A stretch of DNA of 59,853 bases from Bacteroidia bacterium. Lineage in GTDB: Bacteria > Bacteroidota > Bacteroidia > CAIKAF01. The notes beneath the pieces were generated by a model, which ran no database searches, was not told the origin of the DNA, and saw only the letters and a list, made by a program, of their open reading frames with translations. Position 1 is the stretch's first letter. Each line of letters starts with the position of its first letter. Below are positions 493 through 8,788 of this stretch, in pieces. Where the stretch lies: the NCBI GenBank assembly GCA_016742095.1, contig JACVCJ010000007.1, positions 1 through 59,853 of the forward strand, in the 5' to 3' direction. A program made the position numbers and the translations under genes.

Positions 493-709
493 CTTTCTAT
501 GTAAACTACCCCAAATCGTTCTTTCTGCAGCCACAGGGCCGGGTTCCCCTGCTGCTGTGGCAAAGATGCGGTACAAAAAGACACACTCACATCCTGAAAA
601 AGCAGGATATTGCTGCTGCGGCCGGAAAAATCCTGTAAAAACAGGAGCAGCGCGTCCATGCATACAACGTACTTTGCACTATCTTCCCGGAGGATTCATA
701 CATTTGAGA

Positions 710-2662
710 ATGAAGCACCTGTTTATTTTACTCTGCCTTTGCAGTCTGCCGCTCTACAGCCAGGACGCGCGCCATGCCGACAGTCTGCGCAGTGCCCTGC
801 AGCAGGGTGGCAGGGATACGAACCAGGTAAATGCCCTGTACCGTTACGGCGAACTGTTCGAAGACGAACAGCCCGACTCTGCCCTCTCCTATTATCTGCA
901 GGCACATGAGCTGGCCCGTGAAATTCAGTACCTGAGAGGCGAAGCTGCATTTGCCAGTTTCTGTCTGCCCACGCTCAACAACCGGGGAGAATACCGCCGG
1001 GCACTGGATATTGCCCGTGAGGCCCTGGAGATCTACAAAAGAGCAGGAACCCGGCGCGACCTGGCCGTAGCCTACCTGAATGTAGGCAGCGAATGGCAGT
1101 ACCTGTCCGATTTTCAGGCGGCTGCCGATAATTACCTGGAAGCCCTCAAATACGCCGAACAGGTAAACGATACACGCCTGTTACGTATGACGAACAATAA
1201 CCTGGCATCCGTATTCCTGTCCCTTTCCCAGTTCGAAAAAGGACGCGACTATGCCCGCACAGGCCTGCAATACGCCTGTCAGCTGAACAACGACGGGGCC
1301 GTGGCTTCCAGTTTATACAACCTGGCGACCGCAGCCGTGTACCTGGAACGCTACGATACGGCCCTGGTGCTTTTCCACGAGATCGAGAAAATAGCACAGA
1401 AACTGAACGACGACCTCTTTTACCTGGACGCCTGGATCGGCAAAGCCGGGGCCTACGACGGGCTGGGCGTACGACAGAAGGCCCTGTATTATTTTGATAA
1501 GGTGATCGTTTTTTCGAAACAGAAAGAAGTTCCCGAATACGAAATGTATGCCTATATGGGCAAAGCCGAACATTACCTGAAATACAACGATCATGCGGGA
1601 GCCGCCGACGCCATCCGGAACGGCCTGGTACTGGCGGAACAGCTGGAGACCCGGTTCGAACGCAAGGACCTGCTGCTGAAAGCCTCTACGCTGAACGAAA
1701 AGACCGGCAACTACAAAGAGGCCCTGCGGTATTTTAAGGAAGCCCAGGTATTGAACGATTCCATCACCGGTGAAAACCACCGCATTGCCATTGCCAATAA
1801 CGAGGCCCGTTATGAATTCAACAAAAAGGAACTGGCCATCAGCAGCCTGCTGGCGGAGAACGCCCTGCACCAGTCGCAGATAAAACAGCAGCGTACCGTG
1901 AACATTGCCCTGGCGGCCGGCAGTGTGCTGTTACTGCTTATCTTCTTTCTGGTGTACCGCAACGTAAAACACAAGCAAAAACTACAGAAACAGCGCATCA
2001 GCGAGCTCGAGACCGAGAAAAAACTCACCGCTACGGAAGCCATCATCAAGGGCGAGGAACAGGAACGTTCGCGCCTGGCCAAAGACCTGCACGATGGTCT
2101 GGGCGGCATGCTTTCGGGCGTTAAATACACCTTGCACAACATGAAAGAGAACCTGGTACTTACCGAAGACAATGCGCGGGCATTTGAACACAGCCTGCAG
2201 ATGCTGGACAGTTCCATCAGCGAAATGCGGCGGGTAGCCCACAACATGATGCCCGAATCCCTGCTGAAATTCGGACTGGACGCGGCCCTGAAAGATTTTT
2301 GCAGCCAGGTGACCGTAAGCGGTATCCTCCGGGTAAGCTACCAGTCGTTCGGCCTCAGCGGCAAAGAACCGGAACAATCGCTGGCCATTACCATATACCG
2401 CGTTGTGCAGGAACTCCTCAACAACACGATAAAACATGCCGCGGCACACAACGTCATTGTACAGCTGGCCGCCGAAGAGGTACAGATCACCCTGACGGTA
2501 GAGGACGACGGCAAAGGCTTTGATACGGCCTCCCTGGGATCGGCCAAAGGCATCGGCTGGAAAAATATCCTGTCGCGCCTGGATTATCACAACGGCAAAC
2601 TGGACGTACGGTCCTCGCCCGACAAAGGCACTTCGGTATACATAGAATTCAGGACGGCATGA
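710..2662 (+). CDS. TPR-containing sensor histidine kinase (HisKA_3 type)
   Basis: 650-residue sensor kinase. The start at 710 is chosen because it puts a signal peptide (MKHLFILLCLCSLPLYSQ) first; an in-frame ATG at 557 would add an unrelated N-terminal stretch. After the signal comes a long helical sensor region of tetratricopeptide-like repeats (about residues 20-370), one membrane helix near residues 398-420, a short coiled coil, then the HisKA_3 dimerisation box KDLHDGLGGMLSG with phosphoacceptor His461 and an HATPase_c domain with N box (LLNNTIKHA) and G box (DDGKGF). This is the NarL-type kinase architecture common in Bacteroidota. It overlaps the following response regulator gene by 4 bp (ATGA), so the two are a co-translated pair. 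The stimulus cannot be read from sequence. Confidence 0.93.
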   Translation: MKHLFILLCLCSLPLYSQDARHADSLRSALQQGGRDTNQVNALYRYGELFEDEQPDSALSYYLQAHELAREIQYLRGEAAFASFCLPTLNNRGEYRRALDIAREALEIYKRAGTRRDLAVAYLNVGSEWQYLSDFQAAADNYLEALKYAEQVNDTRLLRMTNNNLASVFLSLSQFEKGRDYARTGLQYACQLNNDGAVASSLYNLATAAVYLERYDTALVLFHEIEKIAQKLNDDLFYLDAWIGKAGAYDGLGVRQKALYYFDKVIVFSKQKEVPEYEMYAYMGKAEHYLKYNDHAGAADAIRNGLVLAEQLETRFERKDLLLKASTLNEKTGNYKEALRYFKEAQVLNDSITGENHRIAIANNEARYEFNKKELAISSLLAENALHQSQIKQQRTVNIALAAGSVLLLLIFFLVYRNVKHKQKLQKQRISELETEKKLTATEAIIKGEEQERSRLAKDLHDGLGGMLSGVKYTLHNMKENLVLTEDNARAFEHSLQMLDSSISEMRRVAHNMMPESLLKFGLDAALKDFCSQVTVSGILRVSYQSFGLSGKEPEQSLAITIYRVVQELLNNTIKHAAAHNVIVQLAAEEVQITLTVEDDGKGFDTASLGSAKGIGWKNILSRLDYHNGKLDVRSSPDKGTSVYIEFRTA

Positions 2663-3276
2663 GTACAAAAATTTTCATTGTAGACGATCATTACATGATC
2701 ATTGAAGGCATAAAGTCGATGCTGGTGAACGAACCGGGGATCGAATGGCTGGGGCATGCCTCCAGTGCGGCCAGCTGTCTGTCGTTCCTGCGCGTACACA
2801 CACCCGACGTGATACTGATGGACATAAACCTGCCCGATAAAAGCGGACTGGAACTCTGTAAGGAAGTGACGCAGCTGTACCCGGGCATAAAGATCATCGG
2901 GCTGAGTACGTTCAACCAGCTCAGTTTTATCTCGCGCATGCTGGAGAACGGCGCTTACGGTTACCTGCTGAAAAACGCATCGCGGCACGAGATCCTGCAG
3001 GCCATAGGAACGGTGATGCAGCGCAAACAGTACCTCAGCATCGAAGCCTCGGAAATGGTAAAGAAGAACCAGGGCGACGACAGTCCCGTGCTTACCCGCC
3101 GCGAGATCGAAGTGCTGCAACTGATCGCCGAAGGGCTCACCAATGCCGAAATGGCGGAGAAACTGTTCGTGAGCGTTACCACCATCGACACACACCGTAA
3201 GAACCTGCTGGCCAAATTCAACGCTAAAAATACGGCGGCCCTGGTCTGGGCGGCGGCACAGATGAAATTTGTGTAA
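2659..3276 (+). CDS. NarL/FixJ-family response regulator (partner of the TPR kinase)
   Basis: 205-residue regulator. The receiver domain shows the acidic pair Asp9-Asp10 and the phosphoacceptor Asp55 in the ILMDINLPD motif, followed by the conserved Lys in the GYLLKNAS segment. A LuxR-type helix-turn-helix begins at about residue 144 (LTRREIEVLQLIAEGLTNAE) and ends with the recognition helix TIDTHRKNLLAKF. It binds DNA after phosphorylation by the kinase whose stop codon it overlaps. It is convergent with a second response regulator gene ending at 3357; the 80-bp gap between them holds no obvious terminator. Confidence 0.94.
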   Translation: MSTKIFIVDDHYMIIEGIKSMLVNEPGIEWLGHASSAASCLSFLRVHTPDVILMDINLPDKSGLELCKEVTQLYPGIKIIGLSTFNQLSFISRMLENGAYGYLLKNASRHEILQAIGTVMQRKQYLSIEASEMVKKNQGDDSPVLTRREIEVLQLIAEGLTNAEMAEKLFVSVTTIDTHRKNLLAKFNAKNTAALVWAAAQMKFV

Positions 3277-3356
3277 ATATTGCGTTCATAAAGCGGGACT
3301 GCTCTCTGTGATCCGCAGCCTCCTCAAAGAATTCCCGTCTTAATTTCGTATATCTG

Positions 3357-4040
3357 TCAGTTCAGGTCTACGATGCCGTTACGCAGTGCATACATCACCA
3401 GCCCGGTCACATTGCGCGAACCGGTTTTCTGCAACAGGTTGTTTCGGTGACCATTCACCGTTTTTACGCTGATGAACAGCTTTTCGGCAATTTCTTCGGC
3501 CGTATACTGCTGGCAGACGAGTTGCAATACTTCCACCTCGCGACGCGTGATCTCTACCGGCAGGTTCGGCGTTCTTTTCTTTTTACCGAGATTGTTCCGG
3601 ATGGCCGCGAGCGTATTTTCATTGATATACGAACCTTTGGTCTGTACGGCCACAATGGCTTCGTACACTTCCTGCGGATCGCTGTCCTTGGCAAGATAAC
3701 CGTGCGCTCCCTGCTCGATGAGGCGGGCCATATAACTTTCGTCCCGGTGCACCGAAAGGATCAGTATCTTCATTTCGGGATACGTGTTCAGCAGCAGCTG
3801 GGTGAGGTATTCCCCGCTGAATTCGCGGTTACCGAGGGCCGGCAAAGAAAGGTCCACCAGCATTACATCGGGCAGCCGGTCGCTCTGCTGCAGTTTATCG
3901 AGTACGGAATGCCCGTCGGGCGATTCAAATACGACCTCCAGTTCGGGCCAGTTCCCCAGTATGGCTTTCATGCCTTCCCGGAAAAGTACCTGGTCTTCCA
4001 CCAGGCCGACCTGTATTTTTTCTGTGGTTTTAGAATTCAT
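3357..4040 (-). CDS. NarL/FixJ-family response regulator, last gene of a four-gene operon
   Basis: 227-residue regulator with receiver domain (phosphoacceptor Asp63 in VMLVDLSLP, conserved Lys in HGYLAKDSD) and a LuxR-type helix-turn-helix (ITRREVEVLQLVCQQYTAEE, then TVNGHRNNLLQKTG). It follows the kinase gene 4092-4889 with a gap of about 50 bp and is almost certainly its partner. It is related in design to, but clearly different in sequence from, the regulator at 2659-3276 which faces it. Confidence 0.93.
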   Translation of the reverse strand: MNSKTTEKIQVGLVEDQVLFREGMKAILGNWPELEVVFESPDGHSVLDKLQQSDRLPDVMLVDLSLPALGNREFSGEYLTQLLLNTYPEMKILILSVHRDESYMARLIEQGAHGYLAKDSDPQEVYEAIVAVQTKGSYINENTLAAIRNNLGKKKRTPNLPVEITRREVEVLQLVCQQYTAEEIAEKLFISVKTVNGHRNNLLQKTGSRNVTGLVMYALRNGIVDLN

Positions 4041-4091
4041 AGGGTGTATACGTTATGGGTGTGGATGATCTGTAAATATACGCATCCTGTT

Positions 4092-4889
4092 TTATTCCCC
4101 CGGCAGCGGTATGCATATCCGCGCAAAAAAACCACCTTCGGGCCGGTTCCCCATTTCCAGGCTGCCGTTCAGTACGCTCACCCGGCCTTCCAGATTCTTA
4201 TGGCCCAGTCCGCCCGATACCGTACCCGGCGGCAGACCCGTGCCATTGTCCGTATACAGGCAGTGCAGGAAGCCGGCAGCGGCATCGAGCTGTATTTCAA
4301 TTTCACCGGCCTGTGCATGTGTCAGCGTATTGTTCAGCAGTTCCATCAGTATGCGGTACATGGCCAGTTTCAGCGGCCAGCCCAGTGCGGGCAGCGGGGT
4401 TATTTCGCGGAGGTTCAGCTGCACGCTCCCGGTTGCATTTACCTGTACGGCCAGGGTTTCCAGCGCTTCGGCAAGGTCTTGTCCCTCCAGGTGCAGGGGC
4501 ATCAGTTGCCGGCTGATGCGGCGCATATTGGCCAGGGAAGCTTCAGTAAGCTGCCGGATATTGTTCAGGGCGGCTCCGGTGTTCGCGGGGTCCGTGGCGT
4601 ACGTTTTTTCCAGCTGTACCAGGTGCATGCGGGTAATGGACAGAATGGCCCCCAGCTCATCGTGCAGGTCGCGTGCAATACGCCGGCGCTCTTCTTCCTG
4701 CGCAGCAATGGCAGACTGCAGCAACTCGCGCTGGTAACGGCTTTTCAGTTGTTCCTGTGCCAGTTTCTGGCGGAACAGGTTCTTGCGGAACTGCTGGTTA
4801 AGCAGCACCACCCCGGCCGCAATGATAAAGATCACCAGGGCCAGGGGCAGCAGGGCTGACAGGAAATTTATCTTTTCGGCCGTTTCCAT
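4092..4889 (-). CDS. Sensor histidine kinase, single N-terminal membrane helix (HisKA_3 type)
   Basis: 265 residues from the ATG at 4889; a second ATG at 4907 would add six residues and lengthen the overlap with the upstream gene, so 4889 is preferred. One membrane helix at about residues 9-30 is followed by a short coiled coil, the box RRRIARDLHDELGAILS with His76, and an ATPase domain with LLNNTLTHA (N box) and DNGTGLP (G box). There is no sensor domain of its own, so signal input probably comes from the membrane protein whose 3' end it overlaps (4868-5518) and the lipoprotein before that. It pairs with the regulator 3357-4040. Confidence 0.92.
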   Translation of the reverse strand: METAEKINFLSALLPLALVIFIIAAGVVLLNQQFRKNLFRQKLAQEQLKSRYQRELLQSAIAAQEEERRRIARDLHDELGAILSITRMHLVQLEKTYATDPANTGAALNNIRQLTEASLANMRRISRQLMPLHLEGQDLAEALETLAVQVNATGSVQLNLREITPLPALGWPLKLAMYRILMELLNNTLTHAQAGEIEIQLDAAAGFLHCLYTDNGTGLPPGTVSGGLGHKNLEGRVSVLNGSLEMGNRPEGGFFARICIPLPGE

Positions 4890-5518
4890 AATCCGGTAAA
4901 AAAACAAATATACATTACCACGGAAAAGAACGAGTGCAGTATCCAGGTATAACGGTTCAGATCTTTCGGGAAAGAGTGTGTGATGAGATCGCCGAAATAA
5001 AAAATAATGAGGTTGGACGAGTAATATACGAAAAGGCCCGAGTTGATCCAGTGCAGGCTGCTGATCTGCGCCCGGCGCTGTTCCTTTACCGTATTGTCCA
5101 GCAGCAGCATATAGGTAAACAGCGACAGGATGACCACCAGTACCGATTCAGCGCTGAGTGCATAGGAATTAAACGTGCTGAGCGGCTGCAGGAACAGGGT
5201 ATTGGCTATGCTGAACAGGAGGAAAAGCAGAGCTGCCGCCTCGATGATACGTTTATCGATAAAATTGCGCAGCAGTTCCCGGTAGAACAGGGCCAGCAAC
5301 ATAAAGCCCAGGGCTGTGTATACGTGCAGCAGCGGCAGGTTATTGATGCTGCGGAACCAGAGCAGCAGTGAAATGCCCTGTACGATGGCAGAAAAGAAAA
5401 CAAACAGGGAAAACAGCCGCAGTTCCCGGTCCAGCCGGCGGTAGCAGAAAGCTGCGTATACCGCTGTAAGCAGGATCGGGAAATGCGAACCGATGATGAT
5501 GACTTTGGATAAGGTCAT
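4868..5518 (-). CDS. Multi-pass membrane protein, probable sensor partner of the kinase
   Basis: 216 residues, nearly all hydrophobic, with about seven predicted membrane helices and short charged loops; no enzymatic motif was recognised. It starts inside the stop codon of the lipoprotein gene (ATGA overlap at 5515-5518) and its end overlaps the start of the kinase gene by 22 bp. Similar integral membrane proteins sit beside NarL-type kinases in other Bacteroidota. The sensing role is inferred from this tight coupling, not from any domain. Confidence 0.75.
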   Translation of the reverse strand: MTLSKVIIIGSHFPILLTAVYAAFCYRRLDRELRLFSLFVFFSAIVQGISLLLWFRSINNLPLLHVYTALGFMLLALFYRELLRNFIDKRIIEAAALLFLLFSIANTLFLQPLSTFNSYALSAESVLVVILSLFTYMLLLDNTVKEQRRAQISSLHWINSGLFVYYSSNLIIFYFGDLITHSFPKDLNRYTWILHSFFSVVMYICFFTGLWKRPKR

Positions 5519-6202: not shown

Positions 6203-6226
6203 TTTTTACTTTCCGATACAGAATTT
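6203..6226. repeat. att-like direct repeat, displaced copy of the mnmE 3' end
   Basis: This 24-bp stretch matches 7418-7441 at 20 of 24 positions. Read on the minus strand it encodes Lys-Phe-Cys-Ile-Gly-Lys-stop, exactly the last residues of MnmE, and all four mismatches are at third codon positions. Sequence upstream of these codons does not resemble mnmE, so this is not a decayed second mnmE gene. It fits the distal attachment site of an element inserted at the 3' end of mnmE. The remaining parts of the gap 6031-6349 hold no gene. Confidence 0.7.
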
Positions 6227-6349
6227 GAACCAAATCTGCCTATCCCAACTCCTGTATAAATTTGCTGAAACGACTCTGATTCCAAGTAGCAAAAATGAAA
6301 CAAAAACTGCGTAAATAAAGGATTAGGATAGGTCAAAGACAGTAAAAAA

Positions 6350-7090
6350 CTATTTGGCCAGATTCAACAACCGCTCCGTTGTCTGCCTCACGGCCTCGGC
6401 TACCAGTTCAATAAAGGCCGTCTTGTTATCCTCTCTCGACCGCTCCAACGCATCGTAGTATTTCAGACGGCTTTCGGCATCGCCCCGAATGTTGGCTATG
6501 GGATATCCGTGTTGCAACAGAATCAGGTTCATCACCAATCTTGATGTACGTCCGTTGCCGTCAATAAACGGATGTATGGTTACTAAGCGTTCGTGCATTT
6601 CGGCAGCCAATACTACGGGATGTAAAGTACCTTTACTTTCATTGTAGAACACAAAGTAATCCTCCATCAGCTTTTGCAGCAGGTATGGTTGGGGCGGTGT
6701 GTGGGTACTGCCTGAAATCAGTACGGGAACTTTACGATAAACACCCGCATTTTCCCGGTCAATGCTTTTAAGAATGATGGCGTGAATTTGCTTCAATGTA
6801 CGCTCGTCCAGCACCGCATCCTGTTTTACCAGTTCACCGATAAAATCTATCGCTTCCTTATGGTTGATGGCTTCCAGATGCTCTTTGAGCGGCTTGCCGC
6901 CAATCGTAAGCCCTTTTTCTATGACAAGTTGGGTTTCCTGTAACGTAAGCGTATTACCCTCTATGCGGTTGCTCTCGTAGGTGTACTCGATGGCCAAAGC
7001 CTCCTGAATCCTGGCATTATCCAGCGAACGGAACTTGCCCAGCTCCGCTTTTAGTGTGTCTAATTCCTGTAATAATGCTTGCAATGGCAT
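6350..7090 (-). CDS. Fic-family AMPylase-like protein with N-terminal inhibitory motif
   Basis: 246 residues. The Fic core motif HPFIDGNGRTSR starts at His173, with the catalytic His and the anion-binding DGNGR loop intact. Near the N terminus the sequence SNRIEG (residues 40-45) fits the (S/T)xxxE(G/N) inhibitory helix, so this is a class II, self-restrained Fic protein. A DNA-binding winged helix seen in longer family members is not obvious; the C-terminal about 45 residues are helical. Such proteins transfer AMP (or another nucleotide part) to target proteins. The gene sits inside the mnmE-end island with no separate antitoxin gene. Target and biological role are unknown. Confidence 0.9.
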   Translation of the reverse strand: MPLQALLQELDTLKAELGKFRSLDNARIQEALAIEYTYESNRIEGNTLTLQETQLVIEKGLTIGGKPLKEHLEAINHKEAIDFIGELVKQDAVLDERTLKQIHAIILKSIDRENAGVYRKVPVLISGSTHTPPQPYLLQKLMEDYFVFYNESKGTLHPVVLAAEMHERLVTIHPFIDGNGRTSRLVMNLILLQHGYPIANIRGDAESRLKYYDALERSREDNKTAFIELVAEAVRQTTERLLNLAK

Positions 7091-7137
7091 GGCCTCTTTA
7101 ATAATAGCACAAGTTTACGAAAATTATGGAAAGGCTC

Positions 7138-7162
7138 ATGATAACGAAGCGTCGTTCATCAT
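7138..7162. promoter_or_regulatory. Imperfect dyad upstream of the Fic gene
   Basis: ATGAT-a-ACGA, a 4-base loop, then TCGT-tc-ATCAT make an imperfect inverted repeat about 48 bp before the Fic start. It could be an operator or simply part of the decayed DNA of the island; there is no regulator gene beside it. Confidence 0.25.
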
Positions 7163-7175
7163 TGTTATTGACAAA

Positions 7176-7405
7176 TCATTCTTTTCTCAACTGCATCAGC
7201 AATTCGTTATAAACGGTCTTACCCTTAATGTCGGGCATACGATAGCTGATGTCCTCGAAAAATACCTCCGCAATCGGCCTGAATGATTTTACTTAATGCC
7301 AGTCTTGCGGCGGATGAACGTTGCAGAATACGCAGGCCCTTCGGAGGCAATGTTTTCCTGTGAGCCTTTAATTCTCGTGTAAAACTGTCCTAAGAGGGAT
7401 CCCAT
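7176..7405 (-). pseudogene. Frameshifted 5' remnant of an unidentified gene (possibly a nuclease-family gene)
   Basis: An ATG at 7405, only 15 bp after the mnmE stop, opens a protein-like reading frame (MGSLLGQFYTRIKGSQENIA). Around the CCC run at 7337-7339 the coding signal moves to another frame (ILQRSSAARLALSKIIQAD) and near 7261-7270 to a third (VFFEDISYRMPDIKGKTVYN), ending at a TGA at 7176. The joined product would be about 75 residues. The first part resembles, from memory, the N terminus of a PD-(D/E)XK-nuclease-like family often found in defence islands, but this cannot be confirmed here. With two frameshifts and no catalytic part left it is taken as a dead gene. Confidence 0.5.
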
Positions 7406-7417
7406 GTACATCTTTTA

Positions 7418-7441
7418 TTTCTACTTCCCGATACAAAACTT
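7418..7441. repeat. att-like direct repeat at the 3' end of mnmE
   Basis: This copy is part of the functional mnmE gene and spans its last six codons, the stop codon and 3 bp beyond. It pairs with the copy at 6203-6226 (20/24 identical, differences at wobble positions only). The wobble pattern suggests that the incoming element carried its own version of the gene end, which keeps MnmE intact after integration. Confidence 0.7.
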
Positions 7442-8788
7442 ACTGAAGATATTCCCCAGCAGTTCTTCTACGTCCACGTGGCCAGTGATCTCGCCCAGGT
7501 AGCGCAGGGCGGTACGGATGTCCATGGCCACCAGGTCTCCGGAAAGTCCGCTTTCGATGGCGGTGCGGGCGCGGTCCAGGAAATCGGCCGAGCGGTCCAG
7601 GGCCTGCACGTGACGCAGGTTGCTGATGATCACATCGCTTTCGCCGTAGCCCTCGGTGCCGGCCGCTGTGCGCAATGCCTCCCGGATGGCTTCGATGCCC
7701 TGCTTTTCGCGGGCAGAAATGCGCAGTACAGGAAAATCCGCCGTGTATTCCCGGTCGGCCAGCAGATCGGTCTTATTGGCCACACAGATAATTTCGGCCA
7801 GCGGGTATTCCTTCCGGTAATTTTCGTATACGCTTCGTACTTCGGCAGGCGTATCGGTACCGGCATCAAAAACGTACAGGATGATGCTGCTGCCGCGCAT
7901 ACGCTCGTAGGTACGCTGTACCCCGATGGCCTCGATGGTATCCGACGTTTCGCGCAGACCGGCCGTATCCATCAGGCGGAACTGCAGTCCGTCGATGTTC
8001 AGGATGTCTTCCACTACGTCGCGGGTAGTGCCGGCAATATCGCTTACAATGGCTTTTTCTTCGTTCAGCAGGGCGTTCAGCAGGGTGCTTTTTCCCGCAT
8101 TCGGTTTGCCCACGATCGCTACCGGAACGCCGTTCTTAATGGCATTTCCGAGTTTAAAGGAACGGATCAGTTTTCGTATATGCGTGTCGATCTTTGCAAT
8201 GAGCCGCAGCAGGTCTTCGCGACCGGCAAACTCCACGTCTTCTTCGCCAAAATCGAGTTCCAGCTCGATCAGCGAGGCAAAATGTACCAGTTCTTCACGC
8301 AGGGCCTTTATATCGTTGCTCACCCCGCCGCGCATCTGCTGCAGGGCTATACGGTGACTTTTCTGTGAGGAAGAGGCGATGAGATCGGCCACGGCTTCGG
8401 CCTGGGAAAGATCGAAACGACCGTTGAGAAAGGCCCGCTGTGTGAACTCACCCGGCTCGGCCGTACGGGCGCCCAGCTGCAACAGGCGTTCCATCACTTT
8501 TTGCAGGATATAGGACGAACCGTGACAGGACAGCTCGATGGTATCTTCCATGGTATAGGAACGCGGCGCGCGGAACAGGCTGGCCACGGCCTCGTCGAGC
8601 GGTTCTCCGTCTGCATTGAGCAGGGTACCCAGGTGCAGGGTATGGGAAGCCGCCTCTTTCAGGTTACGGCCCTTCCAGGCGGCCTGTACAATATCGAAGG
8701 CGGCCGGCCCGCTGATGCGTATTATGCCTATGGCACCCGCTCCCTGAGGCGTGGCAATGGCGGCAATGGTATCCTGCTGTAACATCAT
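7421..8788 (-). CDS. mnmE: tRNA uridine-5-carboxymethylaminomethyl modification GTPase MnmE
   Basis: 455 residues from the ATG at 8788, the usual family length; upstream in-frame codons to 8968 run into the neighbouring gene and were rejected. The N-terminal tetrahydrofolate-binding domain (residues 1-120) is followed by a helical region interrupted by a G domain: P loop GKPNAGKS at 227-234, DTAG at 274-277 and NKTD at 338-341. The protein ends in FCIGK with the conserved Cys452. With MnmG it adds the carboxymethylaminomethyl group to wobble uridine 34 of several tRNAs. MnmG is not in the window. The last codons serve as the insertion site of the Fic island. Confidence 0.98.
   Translation of the reverse strand: MMLQQDTIAAIATPQGAGAIGIIRISGPAAFDIVQAAWKGRNLKEAASHTLHLGTLLNADGEPLDEAVASLFRAPRSYTMEDTIELSCHGSSYILQKVMERLLQLGARTAEPGEFTQRAFLNGRFDLSQAEAVADLIASSSQKSHRIALQQMRGGVSNDIKALREELVHFASLIELELDFGEEDVEFAGREDLLRLIAKIDTHIRKLIRSFKLGNAIKNGVPVAIVGKPNAGKSTLLNALLNEEKAIVSDIAGTTRDVVEDILNIDGLQFRLMDTAGLRETSDTIEAIGVQRTYERMRGSSIILYVFDAGTDTPAEVRSVYENYRKEYPLAEIICVANKTDLLADREYTADFPVLRISAREKQGIEAIREALRTAAGTEGYGESDVIISNLRHVQALDRSADFLDRARTAIESGLSGDLVAMDIRTALRYLGEITGHVDVEELLGNIFSKFCIGK

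What the first reader, a model, noticed from the sequence alone, without database searches (positions are those of the whole stretch)
6203..7441. mnmE 3'-end integration site with duplicated terminal codons around a Fic gene
Two 24-bp stretches (6203-6226 and 7418-7441) encode the same six MnmE end residues plus stop, with all four differences at wobble positions. The stretch between holds only a Fic gene and a dead gene, and is A/T-rich compared with the flanks. The pattern fits a tyrosine-recombinase island that restores the mnmE end with its own synonymous copy, as SGI1-like elements do at the same gene. No integrase is present, so it would be a decayed or trans-mobilised mini-island and marks mnmE as an accessory-gene hotspot in this lineage.
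Basis: partly seen in the sequence, partly recalled or inferred. Interest (0 to 1): 0.8.

Follow-up and report, generated by a model that had tools for sequence, protein, structure and literature searches.

The report
Integrase-less Fic island at mnmE
A small stretch carrying one Fic gene sits at the end of the mnmE gene between two copies of mnmE's last codons, which fits a leftover of mobile islands that use this gene as their landing site in many Bacteroidia.

Summary
The repeat is real. The last 18 bp of mnmE (7421-7438) recur 1.2 kb downstream (6206-6223). All differences are at codon third positions outside an identical 7-bp centre (TGTATCG); no simulation came close (0 of 2000).

Relatives support the tyrosine-recombinase reading. 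A Bacteroidia integrase family sits just after mnmE in 14 of 67 named loci with enough sequence, and 27 of its 30 best class-level loci follow mnmE. In the window's own family, G012 has an integrase-bearing element of about 17.6 kb between two copies. In 8 of 8 same-contig pairs with a full-length integrase the 7-bp centre is identical.

The window unit has no integrase, and its genome has no close homologue. It is best called a CIME-like remnant, or a unit moved in trans, with one Fic gene as cargo. Some other mnmE islands carry restriction-modification or other defence-type genes.

Site and repeats resemble SGI1, but no SGI1 backbone is present. Not shown: excision, the parent element, or an empty site in a close relative. 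Eight searches of an open-licence library found no description in Bacteroidota.

The parts
7421..8785 (-). mnmE (tRNA-modification GTPase), the target gene
   Evidence: Pfam MnmE_helical 1.1e-55, TrmE_N 8.4e-43; protein P0001
7421..7438 (-). Proximal copy of the 18-bp core site: last 18 bp of mnmE (TTTTGTATCGGGAAGTAG); under the model its right arm is element-borne
7429..7435 (-). Presumed crossover centre TGTATCG, proximal
   Evidence: identical in both copies; identical in 8 of 8 same-contig pairs with a full-length integrase; the role as crossover is inferred
6206..6223 (-). Distal copy of the core site (TTCTGTATCGGAAAGTAA), preceded by non-MnmE sequence
6214..6220 (-). Presumed crossover centre TGTATCG, distal
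6350..7090 (-). Fic-domain protein, 246 aa, HPFIDGNGRTSR motif intact, SNRIEGN near the N-terminus (recalled as a self-inhibitory motif)
   Evidence: Pfam Fic 3.5e-22; PADLOC SoFic model 9.2e-37, partial; 26 of 27 readable best relatives have a longer frame, 348-385 aa
7091..7417 (.). Unidentified low-GC (0.419) stretch between mnmE and Fic; possible gene remnant
   Evidence: no convincing match
6227..6349 (.). Low-GC (0.350) end of the unit between the Fic stop and the distal copy

Best explanation
The stretch 6206-7438 is a small integrated unit at the 3' end of mnmE. A tyrosine recombinase recombined a circular element with the last 18 bp of mnmE by crossing over within the 7-bp centre TGTATCG. 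The element's own right arm then completed mnmE with synonymous codons, and the original end was pushed to the distal side. The recombinase gene is absent now, most likely deleted from a larger island (a CIME-like remnant), or else supplied in trans. The surviving cargo is one Fic gene, plausibly a defence or toxin-antitoxin-type gene like cargo seen in other mnmE islands. Shown: the repeat, its position, the identical centre, the missing integrase, and a Bacteroidia integrase family tied to this site. Inferred: that such an integrase made this junction, which arm came from which side, and the function of Fic.
For: Repeat far above chance. In 80 named mnmE loci 7 further copies of the motif were found, all downstream on the mnmE strand (7 in 622,225 bases there, 0 in 2,114,639 other strand-bases); two of the 7 (L064, first L094 pair) carry a longer mnmE tail and may be duplications. 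Full or long mnmE-type integrase within 3.5 kb after mnmE in 14 of 67 named loci with at least 2.5 kb there, fragments in 3 more, none elsewhere in the 80 loci. 27 of the 30 best class-level integrase loci have the mnmE 3' end directly upstream; L228, L234 and L251 do not. Of 27 other loci of the 12-genome search 2 do, and both hold the decayed integrase of G323. Same-family G012: integrase-bearing element of about 17.6 kb between two copies. Centre identical in 8 of 8 same-contig pairs with a full-length integrase, and in the window. Arm GGAAAGTAA next to mnmE in 23 of 38 occupied against 16 of 59 unoccupied sites, Fisher p = 0.001, as expected if elements bring it. L032/L028 occupied and single-copy sites. 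G323: sites 2.6 kb apart with broken integrase pieces between. No integrase of this family in G000 (best E 1.5e-11).
Against: No excision product, integrase or close empty relative. The window's distal left arm (GGTTCAAATTC) is unlike the commoner TTACTTTY form, though the L084 and L040 distal copies look similar. The commonest element-side arm is on the distal, not the proximal, copy. Of three pairs with only integrase pieces, two (L067, second L094 pair) keep an identical centre and one (G323) does not; the integrase-less pair G077 does not either. Of the 13 named loci with a full-length integrase, only 6 show a second exact motif copy on the same contig. Identity of the centre may partly reflect kinship and the common TGTATCG form; no correction was made, nor for the occupied and free counts. 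The integrase profile was built from four mnmE-adjacent members, so it favours that kind.
Confidence: 0.78

Rival explanations
1. A variant of the best explanation: a passenger unit that never had an integrase and is moved in trans by one encoded elsewhere, one of many short cassettes at mnmE-type sites. (Its odds overlap with those of the best explanation.)
For: G167 has several site copies with conserved flanks and no close mnmE-type integrase found (best 5.9e-33): one 8.4-kb unit directly after mnmE, the others on contigs not joined to mnmE, among them a 1.5-kb unit whose only listed ORF is a SoFic-type gene. Runella L052 has a 1.45-kb unit with an 84-bp perfect repeat. Imperialibacter L055 has a 2.1-kb unit without such an integrase.
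Against: In the window only one unit exists and its ends do not resemble the conserved ends of G167. The G167 genome is in about 290 contigs, so an integrase may be missing from the assembly. G323 shows that simple decay also happens.
Confidence: 0.25
2. Local duplication of the mnmE tail (slippage or homologous exchange with imported mnmE DNA), with Fic inserted by other means.
For: L064 and the first L094 pair have long mnmE tails at the second copy and unequal centres.
Against: In the window the coding similarity ends abruptly at KFCIGK; the preceding sequence is not mnmE.
Confidence: 0.06
3. Chance resemblance.
For: The 18-bp pattern does occur away from mnmE in family genomes (6 of 24 hits).
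Against: 0 of 2000 simulations reach 20 of 24 within 3 kb.
Confidence: 0.01

Closest known systems
[quoted passage not shown]
   Same: Same gene, same end. SGI1 is bounded by 18-bp imperfect direct repeats, the distal one being the last 18 bp of thdF and the other probably from attP (PMC3285670, passages read). The attR last 9 bp vary with the host gene while the attL last 9 bp come from the element, and non-SGI1 islands stand in tandem at trmE (PMC9035990, passages read).
   Different: No integrase, xis, mobilisation or resistance genes here. The Bacteroidia integrase of G012 has a Phage_int_SAM_5 plus Phage_integrase build. The SGI1 integrase itself was not compared.
CIME (cis-mobilizable element)
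   Same: Keeps both attachment sites and has lost integration and transfer genes (definition in PMC5704250, passages read).
   Different: The parent island is not known, and mobilisation by a partner is untested.
Bacteroidia mnmE-integrase islands found here (G012, G136, L032, L044, L043, L073, L084, L040)
   Same: Same site, same identical 7-bp centre, same orientation downstream of mnmE.
   Different: They carry a full-length integrase and are about 6.5-42 kb (8 same-contig pairs); a helix-turn-helix gene like that of G012 lies before the integrase in 11 of the 14 integrase loci. The window unit is 1.2 kb with neither gene.
dusA-targeting integrase islands
   Same: Another tRNA-modification gene used as attachment site (PMC4482086, start of abstract and one passage; PMC8409611, passages).
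   Different: Different gene, 5' end; those integrases were not compared here.

Membership tests
CIME | Two attachment sites flank the unit | tested here: met
   7421-7438 and 6206-6223, identical 7-bp centre
CIME | No integration or transfer genes inside | tested here: met
   Only Fic recognised; the rest is unidentified broken sequence
CIME | Derived from an ICE or IME by deletion | tested here: inconclusive
   Decay seen in G323 but no parent for the window unit; the 7091-7417 stretch is unidentified
CIME | Can be mobilised by a related element | not testable with these tools
   needs experiment
SGI1 family | Integrated at the 3' end of mnmE/trmE with 18-bp imperfect repeats | tested here: met
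   definition
SGI1 family | SGI1 backbone (int, xis, rep, traN, mpsAB and others) | tested here: not met
   1.2-kb unit with a Fic gene as its only recognised gene
Bacteroidia mnmE-integrase islands | mnmE-type integrase directly downstream of mnmE | tested here: not met
   none in the unit, none in G000 at E<=1e-50; best 1.5e-11 on contig C64
Bacteroidia mnmE-integrase islands | Paired FCIGK-stop sites with identical 7-bp centre | tested here: met
Fic domain proteins | HPFx[D/E]GNGRxxR motif (motif recalled) and Pfam Fic | tested here: met
   Pfam 3.5e-22; HPFIDGNGRTSR
SoFic (PADLOC) | Full-length match to the SoFic model | tested here: not met
   residues 6-245 match model 25-271 of 361, 125 bits; the G167 protein matches 16-359, 326 bits

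The most novel reading that the evidence does not exclude
Bacteroidia keep, at the end of mnmE, arrays of short integrase-less units that share attachment ends and carry single defence or toxin-antitoxin-type genes (Fic, HipA-like). A dedicated mnmE integrase family would move them in trans, in a way that recalls integron cassettes. The window's 1.2-kb Fic unit would be a solitary member.
Probability: 0.17. Interest if true: 0.75.

Novelty: new variant of a known kind. Interest (0 to 1): 0.52.

Why it matters
If right, the same 18 bp of a tRNA-modification gene serve as an island landing site in two phyla: SGI1-like islands in Gammaproteobacteria and an integrase family of Bacteroidia. The end codes for a conserved tail (FCIGK; intact as this motif in 80 of 80 named loci), so an element that lands there can restore the protein, and the match of the 7-bp centre would predict who can integrate where. 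It also gives a marker for finding defence-type cargo in Bacteroidia: look after mnmE, with or without an integrase.

Tried and rejected
Longer mnmE paralogue at 6203-6226: rejected, the upstream codons are not mnmE. Chance: rejected.

Identity of the 7091-7417 stretch: two stop-free pieces were searched separately in Pfam (one weak hit, Gln-synt_N_2 E 0.0077, below its cut-off), NCBIfam, PHROGs (one hit at E 0.19) and plasmids; one of the two pieces also in 149 class genomes (only the window itself matched); and the whole stretch by tblastx and blastn against the loci held then, except seven of the window's own genome. Nothing convincing came out.

Exact empty site of the window: not possible. 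Of 15 other window proteins searched against the family loci around mnmE, two had weak matches (RR205 in L122, rhomboid 1 in L111, both about 31-32% identity) and 13 none. The order search at 90% completeness returned 15 genomes, all of this family.

Same Fic at mnmE elsewhere: of 30 loci of the best Fic hits in 396 class genomes, only the window's own holds the mnmE motif within about 1.5 kb; weaker Fic hits were not checked that way.

Rows dropped: 13 of 80 named loci had under 2.5 kb after mnmE and were left out of the occupancy count (L086 and L103, which do have the integrase, and L069, with a fragment, are among them). In one search my tail test missed L041, L076 and L081 of the 80 named loci and two (L233, L242) of the 27 mnmE-adjacent ones; 13 short and 4 weak loci were kept out of the Fisher table. 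The 59 'free' sites include the integrase-less pairs L052, L055 and L064. One search covered 396 genomes but printed only part of its matches; pairs picked from it (G204, G323, G136, G077, G167) are examples, not a survey. G011 is left out of the centre count because its two copies are on different contigs (centres identical). For PADLOC I gave nine proteins of my choosing, so the cargo list is not a census.

Full report
What is there. On the minus strand mnmE (7421-8785) ends in ...GNIFSKFCIGK-stop. Its last 18 bp, TTTTGTATCGGGAAGTAG, recur at 6206-6223 as TTCTGTATCGGAAAGTAA. In 2000 simulated 3-kb sequences the best match was 18 of 24. The codons before the distal copy are not those of mnmE. 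The stretch between has GC 0.449 against 0.527 and 0.560 outside. It holds one Fic gene (6350-7090; Pfam 3.5e-22), a 327-bp broken stretch that I could not identify, and 123 bp of GC 0.35. The motif by itself is not rare: in the 16 family genomes 6 of 24 hits lie away from mnmE and from the possible distal copies.

Relatives with the missing part. In the window's own GTDB family (16 genomes held, the window's included), G012 has the motif at the end of mnmE and again about 17.6 kb further on. Between them lie two HTH_17 proteins, one of which also matches an excisionase-domain model, a tyrosine recombinase (Phage_int_SAM_5 plus Phage_integrase), an AAA ATPase and cargo. G011 of the same family also has such an integrase right after mnmE; a second site is on another contig, so the pair is not proven.

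How common. I searched 80 named Bacteroidota mnmE loci with four such integrases. Of 67 loci with at least 2.5 kb after mnmE, 14 have a full or long integrase within 3.5 kb (L067 is partial) and 3 more have fragments; no such hit lies elsewhere in the 80 loci. Seven further FCIGK-stop motifs were found, all downstream on the mnmE strand, none in 2.11 million other strand-bases; two of these seven (L064 and the first L094 pair) look like duplications of a longer mnmE tail. In 396 class-level genomes 71 have a profile hit at E <= 1e-50. Of the 30 best loci, 27 carry the mnmE 3' end directly before the integrase; L228, L234 and L251 do not. Of 27 other integrase loci from the 12-genome search 2 do, and both are pieces of one decayed mnmE integrase in G323. 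The profile was built from mnmE-adjacent members, so it favours them; still, kinship to it predicts the site.

The shape of the site. The 18-bp core can be read as TTY, a 7-bp centre TGYATHG, and a right arm. In 8 of 8 same-contig pairs with a full-length integrase (G012, G136, L032, L044, L073, L043, L084, L040) the centre is identical in both copies although it varies between hosts; the same holds for G011 across two contigs. Where only integrase pieces remain it is identical in L067 and the second L094 pair and differs in G323. Without an integrase it is the same in the window, G204, L052, L055 and two G167 pairs, but differs in G077, L064 and the first L094 pair. Of the 13 named loci with a full-length integrase, 6 show a second exact motif copy on the same contig; the others have it on another contig, unlinked, or not at all. 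The right arm next to mnmE is GGAAAGTAA in 23 of 38 occupied and 16 of 59 unoccupied sites (Fisher p = 0.001, not corrected for kinship), as expected if elements bring their own arm. Published work on SGI1 reports this: attL's last 9 bp come from the element, attR's from the host gene (PMC9035990, passages), and the distal repeat is the last 18 bp of thdF (PMC3285670, passages). In the window GGAAAGTAA is on the distal copy and GGGAAGTAG next to mnmE. That is allowed by the observed variety but does not tell which arm came from where.

Empty and occupied. No close relative of the window is held. Of 15 other window proteins, two have weak matches near mnmE in family loci and 13 none. A substitute test worked in Saprospiraceae: L032 has a 6.6-kb integrase island, and the sequence beyond its distal copy matches, over 1544 bp at 74.5%, the sequence after the single mnmE end of L028. 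The match starts 180 and 143 bp beyond the repeats, not at them. One complication: the same L028 stretch also resembles part of the L032 island.

The window unit has no integrase. Neither the interval nor the genome holds a close member of this family: the best profile hit in G000 is 1.5e-11 on another contig. That fits the definition of a cis-mobilizable element, one that has lost integration and transfer genes but kept attL and attR (PMC5704250, passages). G323 shows such decay, with broken integrase pieces between sites 2.6 kb apart, though its two centres differ.

Other short units, and the bolder reading. G167, of another family in the class, has mnmE followed by a unit of 8.4 kb, and further copies of the site whose flanks look conserved over roughly 80 bp by eye. 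A search of its GTDB family (4 genomes) found six such ends in two genomes, five of them in G167. Only one contig is joined to mnmE. On another, a unit of 1.5 kb holds one listed ORF, a Fic protein (Fic_N, Fic and SoFic-like C-terminal domains); on the mnmE contig a second Fic protein lies beyond the first distal copy. No close mnmE-type integrase was found in G167 (best 5.9e-33), but the assembly is fragmented. In G230 the same end is followed by HipA- and HTH-like genes (the names are my reading of the sequence, and this contig is not joined to mnmE). Runella L052 has a 1.45-kb unit bounded by an 84-bp perfect repeat. Such units could be moved in trans; I give an integron-like arrangement a probability of 0.17.

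Cargo. Among nine proteins that I picked, PADLOC matches in other mnmE islands were type IIG restriction-methylation (L032), type III restriction and methylation (G077), a PifA-like KAP ATPase (G012) and PDC-S41 (G204); a DUF4365 protein of G012 had none at 1e-10, and one G167 Fic protein matches SoFic over nearly its full length. Pfam shows a HipA-type protein in G204. The window's Fic matches the SoFic model only in part (9.2e-37). It has relatives in 55 other genomes of the 396 at E <= 1e-40. Of the 29 other best loci, 27 have a readable Fic frame, and in 26 it is longer (348-385 aa); the eight that I aligned show, in the long ones, an additional N-terminal region that reads like a helix-turn-helix domain, while G068 is short like the window. 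None of the 29 lies at an mnmE motif. A defence role for the window gene is therefore an inference from company, not a result.

Known or new. Islands at mnmE are known from Gammaproteobacteria, and so are CIMEs. In the full-text library I searched mnmE, trmE or tRNA modification GTPase together with Bacteroidetes, Bacteroidota, Flavobacterium, integrase, genomic island, hotspot and similar terms. Seven of these eight were empty or gave only one review, PMC5704250, which lists trmE for SGI1 and MGIVchHai6; one search gave 67 papers, of which I saw 20 in the listing, none of them by title about this site in Bacteroidota. The library holds open-licence papers only, so this is no proof. One genomic-island paper tried by DOI was not held, and the large TIGER/Islander resource (PMC12424338, seen in the listing only) may contain such islands.

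Verdict. Observation confirmed; interpretation supported; the window unit is best read as an integrase-less, CIME-like unit at a site used by a Bacteroidia mnmE island system.

Noticed in passing
L145, L146, L148 (G167) and L151 (G230): Units with conserved ends around the mnmE-type site, one directly after mnmE and the others on unlinked contigs, with two different Fic proteins in G167 and HipA/HTH-like genes in G230; no close mnmE-type integrase found in either genome.
   Followed up: partly
L094:11336-12164 and L138:3329: Three FCIGK-stop copies after one mnmE; the second carries about 34 residues of an mnmE-like tail and shares its 7-bp centre with the third, about 20 kb away, as if an island had come in with a foreign mnmE end.
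   Followed up: no
L064:11357-13841 (Marivirga arenosa): A second, longer mnmE tail 2.5 kb downstream with a different centre, and three small genes between.
   Followed up: no
L052:11315-12849 (Runella sp.): An 84-bp perfect direct repeat flanks a 1.45-kb unit with one repeat-rich protein; possibly two tandem units sharing one end.
   Followed up: partly
e.g. L044:11597-12160, L032:11622-12185: A gene related to the G012 HTH_17 protein lies between mnmE and the integrase in 11 of the 14 integrase loci; it may be the directionality factor.
   Followed up: partly
window 557-5518: Two sensor-kinase and LuxR-type regulator pairs lie just beyond the distal site (my reading of the translations; no family search made).
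   Followed up: no
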